Below, piece after piece: positions 10,108-21,405 of a DNA stretch of 64,000 bases. The stretch is from the NCBI GenBank assembly GCA_016650125.1, contig JAENWT010000003.1:124001-188000 (forward strand). The letters run 5' to 3'. The stretch's first letter is position 1, and each line of letters opens with the position of its first letter. Under the pieces are notes generated by a model. That model was not told the origin of the DNA. It ran no database searches and saw nothing but the letters and a program-made list of their open reading frames with translations. The position numbers were made by a program, and so were the translations under genes. The stretch comes from Thermoleophilia bacterium (GTDB lineage Bacteria; Actinomycetota; Thermoleophilia; Solirubrobacterales; 70-9).

Positions 10108-10947
10108 ATGACCCGACTTCCGTATCTCAAACTGGTCCTCGCCACCCTTGCCTTCGGCACCGTCCTGAGCGTGGTCATGCTGATCCCGAACTGGTTCGGT
10201 GAGGAGGGCTCCACGGCGGCACCGGAGATCGACCGGCTCCTTGACGTCACGATCATCCTTTCTTCCTACATCTTCGCTGGTGTCTGCGTTGCCCTCGGAT
10301 ACGCCCTGATCAAGTGGAGAGTCAAGCCGGGCGACGAAAGCGACGGACTTCCGATTCACGGCAACACCAAGCTCGAAATCATCTGGACGATGATTCCGCT
10401 GGTAATCGTCCTGGGACTCGGCGCTTACAGCTGGATCGTGCTCGATGACATCGAAGCCAAGGACAACGACGCGCAGATCATCAACGTCTACTCGCAGCAG
10501 TTCGCCTGGACCTTCGGTTACCCGGAGGAGGGCAACAAGTGGTCCGAAGGCGAACTCCACGTGCCGGTCGACCGCCAGGCCATCTTCAAACTCAACGCGC
10601 AGGACGTCCTCCACTCATTCTGGGTCCCTGAATGGCGGATCAAGAAGGACAACGTGCCCGGGATCACGACCGAAGCGGTCGTCACCCCGGACAAGATCGG
10701 CCACTACCAGATCGTCTGCACCGAGCTTTGCGGCTTCGGCCACGCAACCATGCGGGCCCTCGTCGTGGTCGAGAGCGAGGCGGATTTCGCCAAGTGGGTC
10801 AAGGGGCTCAGCCAGGAAGTTCCGCAGACGCTCGAGCTCACCGCCGACCAGGCGCTCAAAGTCGAGCAGGAGGCGCAGGCCAAAGAGGGCGGCATCGGTG
10901 GCAGCGGCGTTGACGAAACCGGGAAGGACAACGTCGATCAGTCATGA
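10108..10947 (+). CDS. ctaC: Cytochrome c oxidase subunit II
   Basis: The 279-aa protein carries the CuA centre that takes electrons from cytochrome c. Two N-terminal membrane helices (about 8-30 and 45-68) are followed by a cupredoxin domain. The full CuA ligand set is present: His in DVLHSFWVPEW, then CTELCGFGHATM (two Cys, bridging Glu, His, Met). The aromatic electron-entry segment FAWTFGYP is also present. It is the first gene of the + strand oxidase operon, 13 bases before ctaD. It contrasts with the ligand-less paralogue at 20536-21405. Confidence 0.96.
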   Translation: MTRLPYLKLVLATLAFGTVLSVVMLIPNWFGEEGSTAAPEIDRLLDVTIILSSYIFAGVCVALGYALIKWRVKPGDESDGLPIHGNTKLEIIWTMIPLVIVLGLGAYSWIVLDDIEAKDNDAQIINVYSQQFAWTFGYPEEGNKWSEGELHVPVDRQAIFKLNAQDVLHSFWVPEWRIKKDNVPGITTEAVVTPDKIGHYQIVCTELCGFGHATMRALVVVESEADFAKWVKGLSQEVPQTLELTADQALKVEQEAQAKEGGIGGSGVDETGKDNVDQS

Positions 10948-10960
10948 TGAGGATTAGCTA

Positions 10961-12871
10961 ATGGCCATGGCAATCAGACAACCCGGCTGGTACCGCGGTG
11001 CGATCGGCACCCTCCTCGGAGCGGCCTTCGGATTCTTCCTGGTGATCGGTCTGCGGGCCCTCATGGGCCTCGACATCTACCAGACCGAACAGACCGGTTA
11101 CCCGCACATCGTGGTGCCGCTGATCACCGCTCCGTTCGGCTTCCTCTTTGGTCTCGGGGCCTTCGACTACTGGTTCCGCTGGGCGGCCGGCAAGCCGACC
11201 ATTCCCGAGGACCACTCGGGTCACGGCGCCACGAAGTGGCAGGACTACTTCAAGTTCAACACCGACCACAAGGTCATCGGCACCCAGTACGTCGTGACCA
11301 CGATGTTCTTCTTCCTGATCGGCGGCCTGCTGGCCCTGATGATGCGGGCCGAACTGGCTCAGCCGGGCAGCCAGATCGTCGCCGCCAACACGTTCAACGG
11401 CCTGTTCTCGACCCACGCCGTGATCATGATCTTCCTGTTCGTCATCCCGGTCTTCGCCGGACTGGCCAACTACGTGCTGCCGCTGATGATCGGCGCGCCG
11501 GACATGGCCTTCCCGAGGCTGAACGCGCTCAGCTTCTGGCTGCTGCCGATCGCCGGCGTCATCTTCATCAGCAGCTTCCTGGCGCCGGGTGGTGCTTTCG
11601 ACGCCGGCTGGACCGGTTACGCGCCGTTATCCACGGGCGCCCCCCTCGGGCAATCGTTCTTCAACATCGGCGTGCAGTTCGCCGGTGCGTCGTCGATCGC
11701 GACGGCGCTCAACTTCCTGGTAACGATCATCACCATGCGTGCGCCCGGAATGAACCTCTGGCGCATGCCGTTGCTGGTCTGGGCCAACATGTCGACTTCG
11801 CTCCTGGTCGTCGGTGCCACCCCGTTCATCGCCGGCGCCCAGTTCATGGTGCTCTTGGACCGGGTCCTCGGCATGAACTTCTTCGAGTTCCTCGAGGGGG
11901 GTGATGTCCTCAGCTACCAGCACATCTTCTGGTTCTACTCTCACCCTGCGGTCTACATCATGATGTTACCCGGGTTCGGAATCGTCTCCGAGATCATTTC
12001 GACCCATGCCCGAAAGCCGGTATTCGGCTATCGATTGATGGCGCTCGCGCTGATCGGGATCGTCGTCCTCAGTTACTCGGTCTGGGCTCATCACATGTTC
12101 GTGGCCGGCATGTTCGACTGGCTGCGCGTGCCGATCATGATCACGACCATGCTGATCGCGGTGCCGACCGGCATCAAGATCTTCTCCTGGCTGGGCACGC
12201 TGTTCTACGGCAAGATCCACGTCTATTCGACGGCAATGCTCTTCGCGCTGGCTTTCATCGTGACTTTCACAATCGGCGGCATCAGTGGCGTCATGCTCGG
12301 CATGATCCCGATCGACATACACGTGTCGGACACGTACTTCATCGTCGCGCACATCCACTTCGTGCTCTTCGGCGGATCGGTCTTCACGATCTTCGCCGGG
12401 ATCTATCACTGGTTCCCGAAGATGACCGGACGGATGTATGACGAGAAGCTCGGCCGCGTCCATTTCTGGGGCACGGTCATCGGCACCTGGGGTACCTTCG
12501 TGCCGATGCACTGGATCGGCATGGACGGCATGCCGCGACGTGTCGCCGACTACGCCAGCCAGTACGGCGACTGGAACCTCTTCATCTCGGTCTTCGCCTT
12601 CATCCTCGGCTCGGTCCAGCTCGTCTTCTTCTACAACATGATCGTCAGCTGGCGGTTCGGCCCGAAGGCCGGCGACAACCCCTGGCGCTCGAACACGATC
12701 GAGTGGCAGGTCAGTTCGCCGCCGCCGGTCTTCAACTTCGACGAGATCCCGCGTGTGGTCGGCGGTCCTTACGAGTTCGGCACCCCCGGTGCGCGCCACG
12801 CAATCATGGGTGGCGAGACACCAGCCGACATCCCGGAGCCGAAACCGACCACAGTGACCGCACCTTCATGA
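10961..12871 (+). CDS. ctaD: Cytochrome c oxidase subunit I, A2-like
   Basis: This 636-aa protein is the catalytic heme-copper subunit. All ligands are visible: heme a His in LFSTHAVIMIFLF, CuB His and cross-linked Tyr in WFYSHPAVYIMM, the CuB His pair in VWAHHMFVAGM, and the heme a3/heme a pair in VAHIHFVLFGG. D-channel Asp is in IGAPDMAFPR and K-channel Lys in PTGIKIFSW. The YSHPAVY form lacks the helix VI Glu and has Tyr-Ser instead, which is characteristic of A2-type oxidases. Its stop overlaps the next gene (ATGA). Confidence 0.97.
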   Translation: MAMAIRQPGWYRGAIGTLLGAAFGFFLVIGLRALMGLDIYQTEQTGYPHIVVPLITAPFGFLFGLGAFDYWFRWAAGKPTIPEDHSGHGATKWQDYFKFNTDHKVIGTQYVVTTMFFFLIGGLLALMMRAELAQPGSQIVAANTFNGLFSTHAVIMIFLFVIPVFAGLANYVLPLMIGAPDMAFPRLNALSFWLLPIAGVIFISSFLAPGGAFDAGWTGYAPLSTGAPLGQSFFNIGVQFAGASSIATALNFLVTIITMRAPGMNLWRMPLLVWANMSTSLLVVGATPFIAGAQFMVLLDRVLGMNFFEFLEGGDVLSYQHIFWFYSHPAVYIMMLPGFGIVSEIISTHARKPVFGYRLMALALIGIVVLSYSVWAHHMFVAGMFDWLRVPIMITTMLIAVPTGIKIFSWLGTLFYGKIHVYSTAMLFALAFIVTFTIGGISGVMLGMIPIDIHVSDTYFIVAHIHFVLFGGSVFTIFAGIYHWFPKMTGRMYDEKLGRVHFWGTVIGTWGTFVPMHWIGMDGMPRRVADYASQYGDWNLFISVFAFILGSVQLVFFYNMIVSWRFGPKAGDNPWRSNTIEWQVSSPPPVFNFDEIPRVVGGPYEFGTPGARHAIMGGETPADIPEPKPTTVTAPS

Positions 12872-13794: not shown

Positions 13795-14427
13795 ATGGAA
13801 AGCGCCTCAGTCGCACTCGGCCACGGCCACGCTGAAGACGATCATCACCACGGACCGCCCGAGGCCAATCAGAGCGCCCGGATTGATCGCTCGGTCCTCG
13901 GCATTCTGCTGTTCATCCTTTCCGAGGTCATGCTGTTCGGCGCGTTCTTCGCCGCCTACTTCTTCCTCCGGGTCGTGGTCAGCCCCGATACCTGGCCGCC
14001 GGTCGGCGTTGAACTCCCGGTCCTCGTTGCCGGCATCAATACCGTGGTGCTGGTCTCTTCCAGTTTCGCGGTCCATTACGCGCTCGAAGCGATCAAGCAC
14101 GACAACCACCGCGGCCTGAAGCTCGGCCTCGGCATCACCTGGCTGCTCGGCGCGACCTTCCTCTTCATCCAGATCAACGAATACATCCACATCGGCTTCT
14201 CGCCGCGTGACGGTGCCTTCGGCACGATCTTCTTCAGCCTCACCGGCCTGCATGGTGCCCACGTGTTCATCGGGCTGCTGCTGCTGACCTTCGCCAACAT
14301 CCGCGCCTGGCGGGGTCACTTCGGACCGGAACAGAAGGACCACCTGGGTGTCGAAGTGCCGGGGATCTACTGGCACTTCGTCGACATCATGTGGATCATC
14401 GTGTTCCTGGCCGTCTACATCATCTAG
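13795..14427 (+). CDS. ctaE: Cytochrome c oxidase subunit III
   Basis: The 210-aa protein is the short five-helix form of subunit III, which stabilises subunit I and its proton uptake. After a His-rich N-terminus (HGHAEDDHHH), helices begin near residue 30. Family motifs are SEVMLFGAFFAAYF, LTGLHGAHVFIGL and the terminal WHFVDIMWIIVFLAVYI, including the Glu and His residues typical of CoxIII. It completes the ctaC-ctaD-Usp-ctaE operon. Confidence 0.96.
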   Translation: MESASVALGHGHAEDDHHHGPPEANQSARIDRSVLGILLFILSEVMLFGAFFAAYFFLRVVVSPDTWPPVGVELPVLVAGINTVVLVSSSFAVHYALEAIKHDNHRGLKLGLGITWLLGATFLFIQINEYIHIGFSPRDGAFGTIFFSLTGLHGAHVFIGLLLLTFANIRAWRGHFGPEQKDHLGVEVPGIYWHFVDIMWIIVFLAVYII

Positions 14428-14705: not shown

Positions 14706-14746
14706 GATGTGCGATCGGTGTCGTATATCGACACCAAACGCACATC
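14706..14746. terminator. Nested inverted repeat between convergent genes
   Basis: GATGTGCG (14706-14713) pairs with CGCACATC (14739-14746), and inside it GGTGTCG (14717-14723) pairs with CGACACC (14729-14735). The result is a long two-part stem with a TATAT loop. It fills the gap between the convergent ends of the membrane-protein gene and ctaA and reaches the ctaA stop codon. A bidirectional terminator is the simplest reading. Confidence 0.65.
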
Positions 14747-15671
14747 ATTCGTCGGGAGCTGATCGTCGGGTCCGGGCTTCGAGCTGGCCGGCGGCGGCGA
14801 CCGACCAGAGGATCGAGACCCAGGTGAGCGTCGCCACGGCGACGTGGACCCAGACCAGGGCCGCAGGCAGTTCAAGCAGCCACTGGGTGATGCCGATCGT
14901 GATCTGGAGGCAGATCAGGCCGAAGGCGACGGTGAGCGGCTTGATCGCGCGGCGGTCGCCGCCCTGGCGCCGGAGGATGAAGATCACGGCGAGCACCGAG
15001 AGAGCGAAGAGCACCGCCATCGTCGCGTGACGCTGGGCGATCCACTCGAGGGTGTCCTTGCCCTGGAACTCGAAACGGTGGACCAGCTCTTCGTTGTGGT
15101 CGCCGGGGTGGGGGCCCGAGGCCGTGGTGATCGTGCCGAGGAAGATGGTGAACTGGCCGATCGGGATCAGGCAGCGTGTGGCCCAGACCCCGAGCCGGTC
15201 GGTCGAGAAGCGACGCTCGCCGACTTCATACCGGGAGCACCAGAAGAGGGCGAAGGCGGCATCGATCAGGATCATCGAGAGCAGGAAGTGGCCGATCACC
15301 AGCTCCGGCGGCAGGTGGTACTCGACCACGAAGGCGCCCAGTACCGCCTGGCCGATCACCCCGAGCGGCAGCAGCCCGCCGAAGAGGGCCAGGTGCCAGC
15401 GGTAGGGCCGGCGGACAAAGGCGAGCAGCGAGGCGGCGATCACGGCGATTCCGACGAAGCCGGTGAGCACGCGGTTGCCGTATTCGATCACCGCGTTGAG
15501 CTGGGCGGGGGCGACGTAGCCGCCGTAACACTTGGGCCAGTCGGGGCAGCCGAGGCCGGAAGCGGAGAGCCGCACGGCCGAGCCGGTGAGGACGATCAGG
15601 ATCAGCGCGACCAGCGCGATCATCGTCACCTGGGCGTAGCGTTCGGGGGATATCTGGACGCGTTTCAGCAT
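14745..15671 (-). CDS. ctaA: Heme A synthase (COX15/CtaA family)
   Basis: The 308-aa membrane protein oxidises the C8 methyl of heme O to make heme A for the oxidase. Features are the first-loop Cys pair in SGLGCPDWPKCYGG, EYGNRVLTG (helix II Glu/His region), VIGHFLLSM, a large loop with GPHPGDH, and C-terminal heme-binding segments AQRHATMAV and VWVHVAVATL. Eight hydrophobic helices can be counted. It is convergent with the oxidase operon and lies about 50 bases downstream of the dihaem cytochrome gene. Confidence 0.93.
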   Translation of the reverse strand: MLKRVQISPERYAQVTMIALVALILIVLTGSAVRLSASGLGCPDWPKCYGGYVAPAQLNAVIEYGNRVLTGFVGIAVIAASLLAFVRRPYRWHLALFGGLLPLGVIGQAVLGAFVVEYHLPPELVIGHFLLSMILIDAAFALFWCSRYEVGERRFSTDRLGVWATRCLIPIGQFTIFLGTITTASGPHPGDHNEELVHRFEFQGKDTLEWIAQRHATMAVLFALSVLAVIFILRRQGGDRRAIKPLTVAFGLICLQITIGITQWLLELPAALVWVHVAVATLTWVSILWSVAAAGQLEARTRRSAPDE

Positions 15672-15718: not shown

Positions 15719-16429
15719 TCAGCTCTTGGCGCCGTCGGCCGCGGTTGACGACATCAGGAACTGGATGAGCTGCTCGAGCTGGTCCGGCGGGATCGTGTCG
15801 AAGCCGGGCATGACCGCGTTCTCGTAGCCCGGGGCTTTGGTCTTTTGGGGGTCGAGGATCGCTTCCTCGATCTCGGCCTTGCTCATCCCGGGAATCACTT
15901 CGTCGAGGTTGGGTCCGACCACGCCGGCCGACTGCGCCGCGGCCAGGACATGACAGCTGCCACAGCCGTTGTTGGCGAAGACCTGGGCGCCAGAACCTTC
16001 GCCGGGCGCCTTGGGAGGTGCGGCTCCGGGCACGCCGGCGTAACGGGCGATGTAGGCGGCGACGTCATCGAGGTCGTTGCCTTCGACCAGGCCGGCCGGC
16101 ATCGAGACCCCGGGGAAGTTCGCTTCGGACGGCCGCGGATCTTCGACCTGGGCCTCTACGACGCCGCGGATCGTGTCTTCGTCCATGCCGACTTCGCGCA
16201 TCGCGGCGAACGCTGCGTCGAGGTCCGGGCCCTGCTGGCCGACGCTGGCGGCGGCGGCCATCTTGTGGCAGGTACCGCACTTGGCGTTGAAGAGCTGGCG
16301 GCCGCGGTCCTGGAAGTCACCGTTGATCGGCGCTGAATCAGAGGTTCCGCAGCCGGCGAGCACGATCATCGCCAGACCGGCCGTGGCCAGGAGCAGGCTG
16401 ATCTTGGACTTGAGCTTGGTGGCAGGCAT
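15719..16429 (-). CDS. Dihaem cytochrome c lipoprotein
   Basis: The 236-aa product has a lipoprotein signal (IVLAGCGTS, lipid Cys near 27) followed by two cytochrome c domains. Domain 1 has CGTCH with the likely axial Met in VSMPAG; domain 2 has CGSCH with the Met in AVMPGF. It is probably anchored on the outer face and donates electrons to the CuA site of the + strand CtaC. It is transcribed before ctaA. The CxxCH spacing implies covalent haem attachment. Confidence 0.9.
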   Translation of the reverse strand: MPATKLKSKISLLLATAGLAMIVLAGCGTSDSAPINGDFQDRGRQLFNAKCGTCHKMAAAASVGQQGPDLDAAFAAMREVGMDEDTIRGVVEAQVEDPRPSEANFPGVSMPAGLVEGNDLDDVAAYIARYAGVPGAAPPKAPGEGSGAQVFANNGCGSCHVLAAAQSAGVVGPNLDEVIPGMSKAEIEEAILDPQKTKAPGYENAVMPGFDTIPPDQLEQLIQFLMSSTAADGAKS

Positions 16430-17478: not shown

Positions 17479-17772
17479 CTACTCGCGAGTTGGAGCGCTG
17501 AAGCTCTCCACAGGCAGTTCCGCGCGGGCGTCGCCCTGTTCGCGGGGCAGGCTGTAGAAGGCGCGTGATCCCTTGCGGGACATGCTGCGGATCGCGCCGA
17601 CGAAGAAGATGAAGCCGGCGAGGCCGTAGGCCCAGGCCGGGAACATGAAGTCGTTGGCGAAGAGTCCGGCCAGCATTCCCATCACGCCGAGTGCGAAGAA
17701 CGCCGGGCCCCAGGAAGGAGCCGGCAGCTGGATCGTCTCGGTCGGCACGATGATCTGTTCGGAGTCGCTCAT
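17479..17772 (-). CDS. Cytochrome c oxidase subunit IV-like small membrane protein
   Basis: The 97-aa protein has two membrane helices (WGPAFFALGVMGMLAGLF and AWAYGLAGFIFFVGAIRSM) after a short N-terminus with LPAPSWGP, resembling the small actinobacterial oxidase subunit IV (CtaF). The cytoplasmic tail is about 35 residues. Its start overlaps the stop of the 37-aa gene upstream (ATGA), and both follow ctaB in the same - strand operon. Whether it belongs with the active oxidase or with the ligand-less pair cannot be told. Confidence 0.7.
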   Translation of the reverse strand: MSDSEQIIVPTETIQLPAPSWGPAFFALGVMGMLAGLFANDFMFPAWAYGLAGFIFFVGAIRSMSRKGSRAFYSLPREQGDARAELPVESFSAPTRE

Positions 17773-17882
17773 GCGGCGATGTAGAACATTGCGAACAGGA
17801 AACTGACGGCGAATACGGTCGCCGAACCGGCACCGATCAGCATGCCGGTCGAGAAATTGGATTTCGAAGTCTGACGGTCCAT
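17769..17882 (-). CDS. 37-residue single-helix membrane peptide
   Basis: An ATG at 17882 opens a 37-codon frame with a polar N-terminus (MDRQTSKSNFSTG) and one membrane helix (MLIGAGSATVFAVSFLFAMFYIA). Its TGA overlaps the ATG of the CoxIV-like gene by four bases, and it lies 13 bases downstream of ctaB. The tight coupling and clear helix argue for a real gene. Tiny oxidase subunits or assembly peptides of this kind are known in other oxidases, but no family is recognised. Confidence 0.65.
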   Translation of the reverse strand: MDRQTSKSNFSTGMLIGAGSATVFAVSFLFAMFYIAA

Positions 17883-17895
17883 GGACAGAGTTTTA

Positions 17896-18834
17896 TCAGG
17901 CGACGGCGTCGACGGCCATGGCCACGAACAACAGGGCCAGGTAGGCGAGCGAATAGAGGTAGGTGCGCAGGGTAAGCGCCGCCGAGGGCTTGCGCCAGAG
18001 CGCGAAGGAGAACCCGAAGAACACCGTTCCGAGCACGATCGCCGAGGCGAGGTAGAACGGCCCCAGGAGCCCGGTGCAGTAAGGGCCGACCGTGAATCCG
18101 ATCATGAAGACCGTGTAGATCAGGATCTGGAGGCGGGTGGCCGCCTCGCCCTTGACCACCGGCAGCATCGGTATTCCGGTGCGTTCGTAATCGTCCTTGA
18201 TCATCAGGGAGAGCGCCCAGAAGTGGGGCGGGGTCCAGAAGAAGACGATCAGGAAGGGCCAGAGCGCTTCCCAGCTGAGGGTCCCGGCCGCCGCGGCCCA
18301 TCCGACCAGCGGCGGCATCGCACCGGCGCTGCCGCCGATCACGATGTTCTGCGGCGTCAGCGGCTTCAGCCAGAGGGTGTAGAGGAAGACGTAACCGAGC
18401 AGGCCGACCATCGCGAGGCTGGCCGCAAGGAGGTTGACCGTCAGCCAGAGCTGGAAAAAGGCGATCACACCGAGCGAGATGCCGAAGATCAGTCCGTGGA
18501 GAGGAGCGATCCGGCCGTTGACCAGGGGCCGGGAGTCAGTCCGGGCCATGTGGGCGTCACGCTTGCGGTCGATGTAATGGTTGATCGCTCCGGCGCCGCC
18601 GGCCGCGAGGTAGCCACCGAGCATCGTCCAGAGGATCAGCGAAAGCGCGGGGCCTGATGGGTCGGCCACATACATCGTGGCCACCGTGGTCAGCAGCAAC
18701 AGACTGATGACCCGGGGCTTGGTCAGGGTGATGTAGTCGCGAACGATCGCAACCGCGTCATGGAACGGGTTGGCGGGAGCCGTCTCTACTGTCTGGGATA
18801 CGCGCGTCGTCCGCGCATCGGCGCTGCCGATCAT
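17896..18834 (-). CDS. ctaB: Protoheme IX farnesyltransferase (heme O synthase)
   Basis: The 312-aa UbiA-family membrane enzyme adds a farnesyl group to protoheme, giving heme O, the substrate of CtaA. The first Asp-rich motif is NHYIDRKRDAHMARTDSRPL (about residues 95-114), and the second region is the YERTGIPMLP segment. Nine membrane segments can be traced. The start at 18834 lies four bases past the stop of the second CoxI gene, so ctaB is expressed from that operon. Confidence 0.94.
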   Translation of the reverse strand: MIGSADARTTRVSQTVETAPANPFHDAVAIVRDYITLTKPRVISLLLLTTVATMYVADPSGPALSLILWTMLGGYLAAGGAGAINHYIDRKRDAHMARTDSRPLVNGRIAPLHGLIFGISLGVIAFFQLWLTVNLLAASLAMVGLLGYVFLYTLWLKPLTPQNIVIGGSAGAMPPLVGWAAAAGTLSWEALWPFLIVFFWTPPHFWALSLMIKDDYERTGIPMLPVVKGEAATRLQILIYTVFMIGFTVGPYCTGLLGPFYLASAIVLGTVFFGFSFALWRKPSAALTLRTYLYSLAYLALLFVAMAVDAVA

Positions 18835-18838
18835 GAAT

Positions 18839-20536
18839 TCAGGCTACCGGCTGGGGTTCGTCGGCCACCTCGGTGGCTTCGGCGTCGCGGCGGGCGAGGG
18901 CGTCGCGGATATCGCGCATCGGCTGGGTCGAGCGCACGTCCGGCAGCACGTCGAAATTGTGTTCGACCGGGGGCGAAAGGGTCAGCCATTCGAGCGAGTC
19001 GCCGCGCCACGGATCGGGTGTCGCCACGGCGCCTTCGGTCCGGCTCTTGATCAGGTTGCCGACGGCCATGACGATGCCGACCATGAGGATCAGAGTGCCG
19101 AAGACGGCGATCAGGTTGTAGATGTCGACGTCCTCGCTGGCGTAGAAGCGGTAGGCGTCGGTCACCTGTCCGGAGACGCCGGCCGCGAACAGCGGCAGCA
19201 GTGCGATCAGAGTGCCGGCAAACATGACACCGAAGGAGATCTTGGCCCGCTCCTCGTTGAGCATCCGGCCGGTGATCTTCGGGTACCAGTAACTGACCGC
19301 GGCCAGACCGCCGAAGATGGCGAACCCGATCAGCGCGAAGTGCGTGGCCGCCCACGCGTCATAGGTGTGCTGGAGCTGGGTGCCGACGGCGATCGTCGAC
19401 TGGGAGATCTCCACGGCCAGCCCGATGGAAGCCAGCGAGAGTGCCCCCATGGCGTAACGTAGCGGCGCCCGCATGTGGAAATCGCTCGAGGCGACGGTAC
19501 TGATCAGGTTGTAGAAGATCAGGCCGAACGGCACGATCAGCGAGATCGAGACCAGCATCGCGAAGTACTTCCAGCCGCTGGGCAGCGGAGCGGTGATCAT
19601 GTTCTGGGTCCAGGCGAGCGTGCCGAGGACCGCGATCGCTACCAGTGAGCCGATGACCGCGCCGCGGCCGGGCAGCTCGCGGCGGGTGAAGGACTGGACG
19701 ATCTCCGAGATCGCGGCCAGCATGGTCACGGCGATGATCATGTAGCCGGCGGTGAAGTAGATGTAAGTCATGTGCTGCCAAAGCAGCGGCGCCCCGCCGG
19801 AACCGCCGGCGAAGAAAGCGCCGCCCAGCCGCCGGTCGATCATCAGCATCGTCAGCGCGGCCAGCATGATCGGCGCGACCACGACCATCAGCCAGGTGAC
19901 GATCGCGGCGGCCCAGGTGAAGATCGGGGCGCGGCGCCAGGCCATGCCGGGGGCCCGCAGGTTGTGCAGGGTGGTGAGCAGGTCGATCGAGATCAGCAGC
20001 AGGCCGAGGACGATCATCGCGGTCGAGGAGATCCAGACGTCGACGCCGTTGTTCGGCGTGAATGCGAGCTCGGAGAGCGGCGGCAGCGGGTTGATCCCGG
20101 CTTCCGGCGGTGTGAAGAGGAATGCTGCGTAGAGCATGATGCCGCCGAGCAGGAAGAGCCACATCCCGGACTGGCCGAGGCGCGGCAGGGCGGTTCCGCG
20201 GCTGCCGATCTGAAGCGGCACGACGTAGTAGAAGAGTCCGATGCAGAGCGGCAGAGCAAAGAGGAAGATCGCGGTTTCGCCGTAGACCGAGAGCAGACGG
20301 TCGAACGTGACCGCGTTGAGGAAGACGTTCTCTGGGACCGACAGCTGGATCCGCAGGAGCAACAGCTCGAGTGCGGCCAGGAAGAGCGAGCCGAAGGCGG
20401 TCGTCAGAAGGACCGAGGCGATCGACTTATGGTCGGCGCTGGTGGCGATCTGGGCCCAGCGCGGGCGCGGGTCGGTGTCCGGCAGGTTCGAGATCTCGGG
20501 CCTGGTCGGCGGCATCGTGGTCGGGTAACTGCCCAT
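18839..20536 (-). CDS. CoxI-like heme-copper oxidase paralogue lacking active-site ligands
   Basis: The 565-aa protein aligns along its length with subunit I (SADHKSIAS start, WQH in helix VI, YWYPKITGRM). Against the CtaD of this window, gapless motif alignment shows heme a His replaced by Tyr85, the helix VI CuB His by Thr262 and cross-linked Tyr by Met266, the CuB His pair by Gln311-Asn312, and the heme a3 His by Ala397; only His399 (heme a side) remains. The D-channel Asp and K-channel Lys (Ile340) are lost too. The frame is intact, so decay looks unlikely. It cannot be a normal oxidase. Confidence 0.9.
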   Translation of the reverse strand: MGSYPTTMPPTRPEISNLPDTDPRPRWAQIATSADHKSIASVLLTTAFGSLFLAALELLLLRIQLSVPENVFLNAVTFDRLLSVYGETAIFLFALPLCIGLFYYVVPLQIGSRGTALPRLGQSGMWLFLLGGIMLYAAFLFTPPEAGINPLPPLSELAFTPNNGVDVWISSTAMIVLGLLLISIDLLTTLHNLRAPGMAWRRAPIFTWAAAIVTWLMVVVAPIMLAALTMLMIDRRLGGAFFAGGSGGAPLLWQHMTYIYFTAGYMIIAVTMLAAISEIVQSFTRRELPGRGAVIGSLVAIAVLGTLAWTQNMITAPLPSGWKYFAMLVSISLIVPFGLIFYNLISTVASSDFHMRAPLRYAMGALSLASIGLAVEISQSTIAVGTQLQHTYDAWAATHFALIGFAIFGGLAAVSYWYPKITGRMLNEERAKISFGVMFAGTLIALLPLFAAGVSGQVTDAYRFYASEDVDIYNLIAVFGTLILMVGIVMAVGNLIKSRTEGAVATPDPWRGDSLEWLTLSPPVEHNFDVLPDVRSTQPMRDIRDALARRDAEATEVADEPQPVA

Positions 20537-21405
20537 CAGCTCTGCCCGTCCCCGGCACTCTTGGCCGTGTCGGTGTTGTTGGTCGCCGCTTCTTTATGGA
20601 TCTTGGCGGTGTTTTCGGCCACGGCTTTGTTCTTACGCTCGACCGTGTCCTGGGCCGCCTGGATGTCGGCACCCAGCTGCTTCACGTAAATCTCGTACTG
20701 ATCGGGTGAGACGACGCTGACCTCGATCGACATCGTCGAGTAACCCTGGCCGGAGAGGACAGCGGAGCGCCCGTTGTAAATGCCCTCGTCATCGGCGCGG
20801 AAGTAGACCCAGTTGGTCTTGCCCGGCACGGCATCGGCCTTGCCGGTGAGCGAAGGTACGTTCCAGCCGTGGATCACGTCAGTCGACTTGAGCTTGAGGG
20901 CCACGGTCACGCCGGCCGGTACGACCAGGCGCCGGTAGCTGAAGGCGCCATTCGGATAGCTGAAGCGCCAGAGCCACTGCTGTCCCGTCGCTTCGATTTC
21001 GAGCTGGTCGTCGCCGGTCATGCCGGCGACGGTCTCGGTGCTGACCGGGACCACACGGGACTGGTCGGAGAAGACGGTGGCGGTGACGAAAATCGCAAGC
21101 GCGACGACGCCGAGTCCGAGCCCGACCTTGAGCTGGCCGCCCTTCTTTACGGTGGCGCCGTCACCCGGGATGTGACGGTGCCGCGGCCGGGCGGCACGAA
21201 GGATCGCGAGATTGACCACCACAATGATGATTCCGATGACCACGAACAGGATCCAGTACAGCGTGTTCGCTTTATCGATCCCGGCGGAACCCGCATCGGG
21301 ATTGAGCGAAAGGGCGGTCGCCGGACCGGCGAACGCGGCGATTCCGGTCAGAAATCCGGCCAGTGCAATGGACAGAGAGACGATTTTTCGTGGGCGAGGC
21401 AGCAA
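20536..21405 (-). CDS. CoxII-like protein lacking the CuA site
   Basis: The 289-aa product has a signal or first helix, a second helix region (about 50-70), a third hydrophobic stretch (about 93-112), and a cupredoxin domain with WLWRFSYPNG and DVIHGWNVPSL (His179 kept). At the CuA loop the aligned 16 residues read YNGRSAVLSGQGYSTM: both Cys are Ser (214, 218), Glu is Val216 and the second His is Tyr222; Met225 stays. Binuclear copper therefore cannot form. It is translationally coupled to the CoxI-like gene (TGATG overlap). A Lys/Ala/Glu-rich tail follows. Confidence 0.9.
   Translation of the reverse strand: MLPRPRKIVSLSIALAGFLTGIAAFAGPATALSLNPDAGSAGIDKANTLYWILFVVIGIIIVVVNLAILRAARPRHRHIPGDGATVKKGGQLKVGLGLGVVALAIFVTATVFSDQSRVVPVSTETVAGMTGDDQLEIEATGQQWLWRFSYPNGAFSYRRLVVPAGVTVALKLKSTDVIHGWNVPSLTGKADAVPGKTNWVYFRADDEGIYNGRSAVLSGQGYSTMSIEVSVVSPDQYEIYVKQLGADIQAAQDTVERKNKAVAENTAKIHKEAATNNTDTAKSAGDGQS

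What the first reader, a model, noticed from the sequence alone, without database searches (positions are those of the whole stretch)
18839..21405. A CoxI/CoxII pair that has lost the catalytic heme-copper and CuA ligands but remains intact
Seen directly, by gapless motif alignment to the active CtaC/CtaD in the same window: CoxI-like has Tyr85 for the heme a His, Thr262 and Met266 for the CuB His and cross-linked Tyr, Gln311-Asn312 for the His pair, Ala397 for the heme a3 His, and no D-channel Asp or K-channel Lys; one helix X His (399) stays. CoxII-like has Ser214/Ser218 for both Cys, Val216 for Glu and Tyr222 for His. Both subunits lost function in parallel, yet both frames are full length, coupled by TGATG, and followed at once by ctaB and two small membrane genes. 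Known from the family: these residues are essential for O2 reduction. Inference: the pair has been repurposed, for example as an assembly scaffold, a regulator, or a proton/ligand channel.
Basis: partly seen in the sequence, partly recalled or inferred. Interest (0 to 1): 0.88.

Follow-up and report, generated by a model that had tools for sequence, protein, structure and literature searches.

The report
Hollow cytochrome oxidase kept beside ctaB
A family of soil and freshwater bacteria keeps, under selection, a complete-looking copy of the oxygen-reducing respiratory enzyme from which nearly every heme- and copper-binding site has been removed, so an old enzyme seems to have become a non-catalytic membrane part whose job is still unknown.

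Summary
The CoxI/CoxII pair (18839-21405, minus strand) has lost the heme a3, CuB and CuA sites, one heme a His, the Tyr and both proton channels (one heme a His and two CuA ligands remain). Both frames are intact. It is no local decay: 48 of 50 sampled genomes of the same Solirubrobacterales family carry it, dN/dS is 0.16-0.32 (CoxI) within the genus, and new residues are fixed (Q311-N312, R80, E376, D460, D533). Synteny and trees show in-place descent from an active second oxidase: sister families have a fully liganded pair at the same spot, followed by the same ctaB, 37-aa and two-helix genes. The same locus lost its ligands independently in at least one other lineage; there a congener is still active and the heme a histidines survive. 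The predicted folds are intact. Function is untested; I favour a non-catalytic structural or assembly role for the heme A oxidase pathway. Precedent: a ligand-free COX1 gene beside ctaB in Acetobacter. New here: another phylum, CoxII emptied too, fixed across a family, living active orthologues, repeated loss. New variant of a known kind.

The parts
18839..20536 (-). CoxI-like pseudo-oxidase subunit I, 565 aa: 12-helix COX1 fold without heme a3/CuB ligands
20536..21405 (-). CoxII-like subunit, 289 aa: membrane helices and a cupredoxin domain without the CuA Cys/Glu/His; H179 and M225 kept. TTG start as listed; the true start could be internal
17896..18834 (-). ctaB, heme O synthase, intact; the only copy found in the genome
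   Evidence: TIGR01473 317.8 bits; single copy
17769..17882 (-). 37-aa one-helix protein MDRQTSKSNFSTGMLIGAGSATVFAVSFLFAMFYIAA, conserved in active and dead operons; likely small oxidase subunit
17479..17772 (-). 97-aa two-helix protein; its positional counterpart in active operons hits Cyt_c_ox_IV only below threshold
10108..10947 (+). ctaC, active CoxII with full CuA site (comparison)
10961..12871 (+). ctaD, active CoxI with all ligands (comparison)
13795..14427 (+). ctaE, CoxIII of the active oxidase
14745..15671 (-). ctaA-like heme A synthase
15719..16429 (-). cytochrome c with two c-type heme stretches, conserved neighbour in this family

Best explanation
It is a pseudo-oxidase: a second A-type heme-copper oxidase that lost its redox cofactor sites in place and is kept as a folded, non-catalytic membrane complex (CoxI + CoxII + 37-aa + two-helix subunits). 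Shown: ligand loss, intact frames, purifying selection, in-place descent from an active oxidase, shared accessory genes, intact predicted folds. Inferred: the complex still forms, holds no heme a3/CuB/CuA and does no O2 chemistry. Inferred and less certain: it serves as a structural or assembly partner of the remaining heme A oxidase pathway (CtaB/CtaA and the CtaCDE oxidase), perhaps through its conserved cytosolic face.
For: Same substitutions throughout the family (N312 46/46, Q311 45/46). dN/dS within genus: CoxI 0.16-0.32, CoxII 0.23-0.43, close to ctaB 0.14-0.27 and ctaA 0.11-0.36, though about 2-3 times active ctaD 0.08-0.12. Active orthologue at the same spot between flippase/PAP2 and ctaB in sister families, with the same 36-37-aa and two-helix genes. 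CoxI model pLDDT 80, pTM 0.85, TM-score 0.88 to actinobacterial aa3; CoxII model keeps the cupredoxin fold. Constraint is released most in helix VI and loop 6-7 (active site), while the cytosolic tail 502-545 keeps 22/44 near-invariant sites. ctaB next door is the sole heme O synthase found. A ligand-free COX1 also sits beside ctaB in Acetobacter, where a role in stabilising CtaB was proposed (PMC10715153).
Against: No direct evidence of expression, complex formation or partners. In genera g10/g11 of the family ctaB belongs to another lineage than in the rest (apparent in-place replacement), so a tight CoxI-CtaB partnership is not required. Rate-correlation analysis did not single out a partner. 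dS is near saturation in these GC-rich genes, so omega values are approximate and more distant pairs give higher ones. The named records are all MAGs; the others are unnamed.
Confidence: 0.5

Rival explanations
1. Specific CtaB stabiliser: dead CoxI is a membrane chaperone of heme O synthase, as proposed for the Acetobacter case.
For: Immediate linkage to ctaB in almost all loci of the family, single ctaB in the genome, same arrangement reported in Acetobacter.
Against: ctaB was exchanged for a different lineage in g10/g11 while the pair stayed; linkage to ctaB already existed when the pair was active, so it is inherited; does not explain keeping CoxII and the small subunits.
Confidence: 0.17
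2. Sensor or regulator: the empty heme/CuA sites bind a ligand (heme, Cu(I), a quinone) and report respiratory state.
For: New fixed polar residues (Q311, N312 in the former CuB site; R80, E376) and invariant H179/M225 in CoxII.
Against: No signalling domain or regulator gene joined to it; the new residues could simply fill the empty pocket.
Confidence: 0.1
3. Proton, ion or small-molecule channel/transporter built on the CoxI fold.
For: Intact 12-helix fold and a conserved new carboxylate E376.
Against: D-channel Asp and K-channel Lys are lost and not replaced by an evident conserved proton path; no transporter-like neighbours in the operon.
Confidence: 0.06
4. Slow decay: the pair is a vestige kept only because it lies upstream of essential ctaB in one operon.
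For: Faster evolution than active ctaD; several f2/f3 genomes show no close match to the pair at all, so the active form can be lost.
Against: No stop inside the family's matches, dN/dS 0.16-0.43 in both subunits within the genus, fixed new residues across about 11 genera.
Confidence: 0.1
5. New redox or other chemistry with a different cofactor in the old pocket.
For: Specific fixed residues in the pocket; CoxII keeps one His and one Met of CuA.
Against: No conserved set of metal or heme ligands remains in CoxI across the family; H399 is lost in outer genera.
Confidence: 0.07

Closest known systems
Deranged COX1-like protein of Acetobacter spp., in a ctaB cluster (Degli Esposti et al. 2023, PMC10715153, citing Matsutani et al. 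2014, doi 10.1016/j.bbabio.2014.05.355)
   Same: COX1 homologue lacking all conserved metal-binding residues, retained beside ctaB, presumed structural.
   Different: Alphaproteobacteria, not Actinomycetota; the passages read describe COX1 only, whereas here CoxII is also emptied and two small membrane genes are kept; here an active aa3 oxidase coexists and active orthologues survive at the same locus in sister families. I could not fetch the Acetobacter sequence, so common descent was not tested.
A-type heme-copper oxidases (CtaC/CtaD; bcc-aa3 oxidase of Corynebacterium/Mycobacterium)
   Same: Sequence family, 12-helix fold, CoxI/CoxII gene pair, ctaB/ctaA neighbours.
   Different: All catalytic ligands but one heme a His and two CuA ligands, and both proton channels, are missing.
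Deranged bc1 complex of acidophilic Acetobacteraceae (PMC10715153)
   Same: Respiratory complex retained after loss of cofactor ligands, proposed structural role.
   Different: Different complex and lineage.

Membership tests
A-type heme-copper oxygen reductase | COX1 fold and sequence homology | tested here: met
   Pfam 258 bits; TM-score 0.88
A-type heme-copper oxygen reductase | six His ligands of heme a, heme a3 and CuB | tested here: not met
   one of six (H399) remains in the window protein; lost as well in outer genera
A-type heme-copper oxygen reductase | cross-linked Tyr, D- and K-channel residues | tested here: not met
   M266, G114 and no Lys
A-type heme-copper oxygen reductase | CuA site in subunit II | tested here: not met
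   both Cys, the Glu and one His replaced
Ligand-free COX1 next to ctaB (Acetobacter kind) | metal-binding residues lost, intact frame, ctaB neighbour | tested here: met
   one heme a His persists in part of the family
Ligand-free COX1 next to ctaB (Acetobacter kind) | common origin with the Acetobacter gene | not testable with these tools
   Acetobacter sequence could not be fetched; nearest relatives of this one are active Solirubrobacterales oxidases, so separate origin is likely
Ligand-free COX1 next to ctaB (Acetobacter kind) | structural role for CtaB | not testable with these tools
   needs a deletion experiment; ctaB replacement in g10/g11 argues against strict pairing
Pseudogene | disrupted frame or neutral evolution | tested here: not met
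   no stops, dN/dS well below 1 within genus

The most novel reading that the evidence does not exclude
A cofactor-free 'hollow' complex IV is a recurrent evolutionary outcome: in one bacterial order the same oxidase locus lost its redox sites at least twice and kept its folded core and accessory subunits as a structural partner of the remaining respiratory chain, with an intermediate (heme a only) and an active form still alive in one genus.
Probability: 0.4. Interest if true: 0.8.

Novelty: new variant of a known kind. Interest (0 to 1): 0.64.

Why it matters
Heme-copper oxidases are usually judged by their ligands, and at least one widely used survey discarded sequences without the six histidines (PMC3084760), so such proteins can go unseen and be annotated as ctaD/ctaC. 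A family-wide hollow CoxI/CoxII with living active orthologues and a recent independent loss within one genus makes it possible to test what complex IV does besides catalysis, in assembly, supercomplexes or heme delivery.

Tried and rejected
Recent decay or assembly error: rejected by recurrence in 48 of 50 genomes of the family and in public MAGs of separate projects. Missing pair in G007 as evidence of dispensability: rejected, because trxB and ctaB of the locus are absent there too. One versus two losses for families f1 and f4: the CoxI tree joins them (100*) but on long branches, and rpoB leaves f1/f3/f4 unresolved, so left open. First rpoB tree used antisense ORFs in some genomes and was discarded. 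Mirror-tree search for a partner: inconclusive, since unrelated neighbour genes correlate equally. Literature search for a description in Thermoleophilia/Solirubrobacterales: nothing found. Retrieval of the Acetobacter sequence: not possible with the collections left. Other orders of the class were not surveyed for further losses.

Full report
What is there. On the minus strand at 18839-21405 lie two complete frames that match COX1 and COX2. In CoxI: Y85, T262, M266, Q311-N312, A397, G114 for the D-channel Asp and no K-channel Lys; H399 remains. In CoxII: both Cys, the Glu and one His of CuA are replaced, while H179 and M225 remain. The NCBIfam model for active CoxI matches far below its cut-off (351 against 671 bits; the active CtaD of the window scores 656). 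Downstream are ctaB, a 37-aa one-helix frame (17769-17882; sequence) and a 97-aa two-helix frame.

Distribution. A search of 151 genomes of the order found close relatives in 48 of 50 genomes of the window's own family (f1; one of them only as a fragment). One exception is a 54% complete genome; the other (G007) lacks ctaB and trxB of the locus as well. Motif columns in the family show the key ligands replaced: N312 in 46/46, Q311 in 45/46. The helix X His is kept in genus g1 and most of g10/g11 and lost in the outer genera. Other residues are newly fixed: R80, L373, E376, D460 (Arg in active forms), G410 and D533. Named public records are MAGs of uncultured Solirubrobacterales and other Actinomycetota from several separate projects.

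Origin. In sister families f2 and f3 the best match is a pair at the same place (flippase and PAP2 genes on one side, ctaB on the other) with all ligands intact: about 78 sequences, one exception. The active operon is cox2-cox1-(ctaA)-ctaB-36 aa-two-helix protein, with no CoxIII recognised in it. The small genes are kept in dead operons too. So the dead pair is the in-place descendant of an active second oxidase. Family f4 has its own emptied pair with different replacements (one CuB His kept); the tree joins it with f1, but on long branches, and rpoB does not resolve f1, f3 and f4. The exception in f2, G045 (L109/L197), is an independent loss: it groups with its active congener G057 (99*). 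rpoB is 99.2% identical between the two while CoxI is 67%. G045 lost CuA, CuB and the heme a3 His but keeps both heme a histidines, which looks like an intermediate stage.

Selection. Within genus g1, dN/dS is 0.16-0.32 for CoxI and 0.23-0.43 for CoxII, in the range of ctaB and ctaA and above active ctaD. dS is near saturation, so these are estimates; more distant pairs (other genera) give higher and unreliable values, 0.4-0.7, for ctaB as well. Compared with active orthologues, constraint has fallen most in helix VI and the short loop 6-7 (the CuB/Tyr/Glu region); short loop 2-3, which holds the D-channel Asp, fell strongly too. The cytosolic tail 502-545 remains among the best conserved regions.

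Structure. AlphaFold2 gives CoxI pLDDT 80 and pTM 0.85; the best fold match is CoxI of the Corynebacterium bcc-aa3 supercomplex, TM-score 0.88. CoxII keeps membrane helices and the cupredoxin domain (pLDDT 82.5; matches to CoxII). No complex was predicted, and a fold predicted from a homologous family is only weak evidence that the protein is made and assembled.

Function. The shown steps end with a conserved, folded, nearly ligand-free pair. I infer that it is a non-catalytic complex. The most economical role is structural or assembly support for the remaining heme A oxidase, since the organism has an active CtaCDE, one ctaB, a cytochrome b and no NrfD-type alternative complex III. A specific partnership with CtaB, proposed for the Acetobacter case, is weakened by replacement of ctaB in genera g10/g11 and by the fact that the linkage predates the loss. 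Rate correlations did not identify a partner.

Known or new. A ligand-free COX1-like gene in a ctaB cluster was reported in Acetobacter and judged structural (PMC10715153, citing Matsutani et al. 2014, which I could not read). An HCO classifier excluded sequences without the six histidines (PMC3084760). I found no report for Thermoleophilia or of a CoxI/CoxII pair emptied together, but only open-access papers were searched. Hence: new variant of a known kind.

Noticed in passing
L109 / L197 (G045) versus L166 (G057): Within one genus an active and an emptied version of the same oxidase coexist at 99.2% rpoB identity; the emptied one keeps both heme a histidines but not heme a3, CuB or CuA.
   Followed up: yes
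L157-L160 (family f4), e.g. L159:6139-8933: A second family with its own emptied CoxI/CoxII at the same locus, with different replacement residues and one CuB His kept.
   Followed up: partly
ctaB of L022-L032, L042 (genera g10/g11): ctaB next to the dead pair belongs to the f2/f3 lineage, unlike the rest of the family: apparent in-place gene replacement.
   Followed up: partly
window 17769-17882 and homologues in L054-L219, L116, L130: A 36-39-aa one-helix protein (start MDR/MDK..., then a single hydrophobic helix) follows ctaB in many Solirubrobacterales and some Dormibacterota; the window copy matches no NCBIfam model; likely an unannotated small oxidase subunit.
   Followed up: partly
G000:C3:60000-68500 (L155:3337-5421): A further COX1-family protein with a His pair (YSHHLY), followed by a cytochrome c gene; type unclear.
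   Followed up: no
G000:C29:17000-26000 (L156:3254-5638): A 795-aa COX1-family protein resembling quinol-dependent NO reductase by its N-terminal part (judged by eye).
   Followed up: no
L033:294-1466: In one relative the dead CoxII frame extends C-terminally into a cytochrome c-like domain (CSVCHG motif).
   Followed up: no
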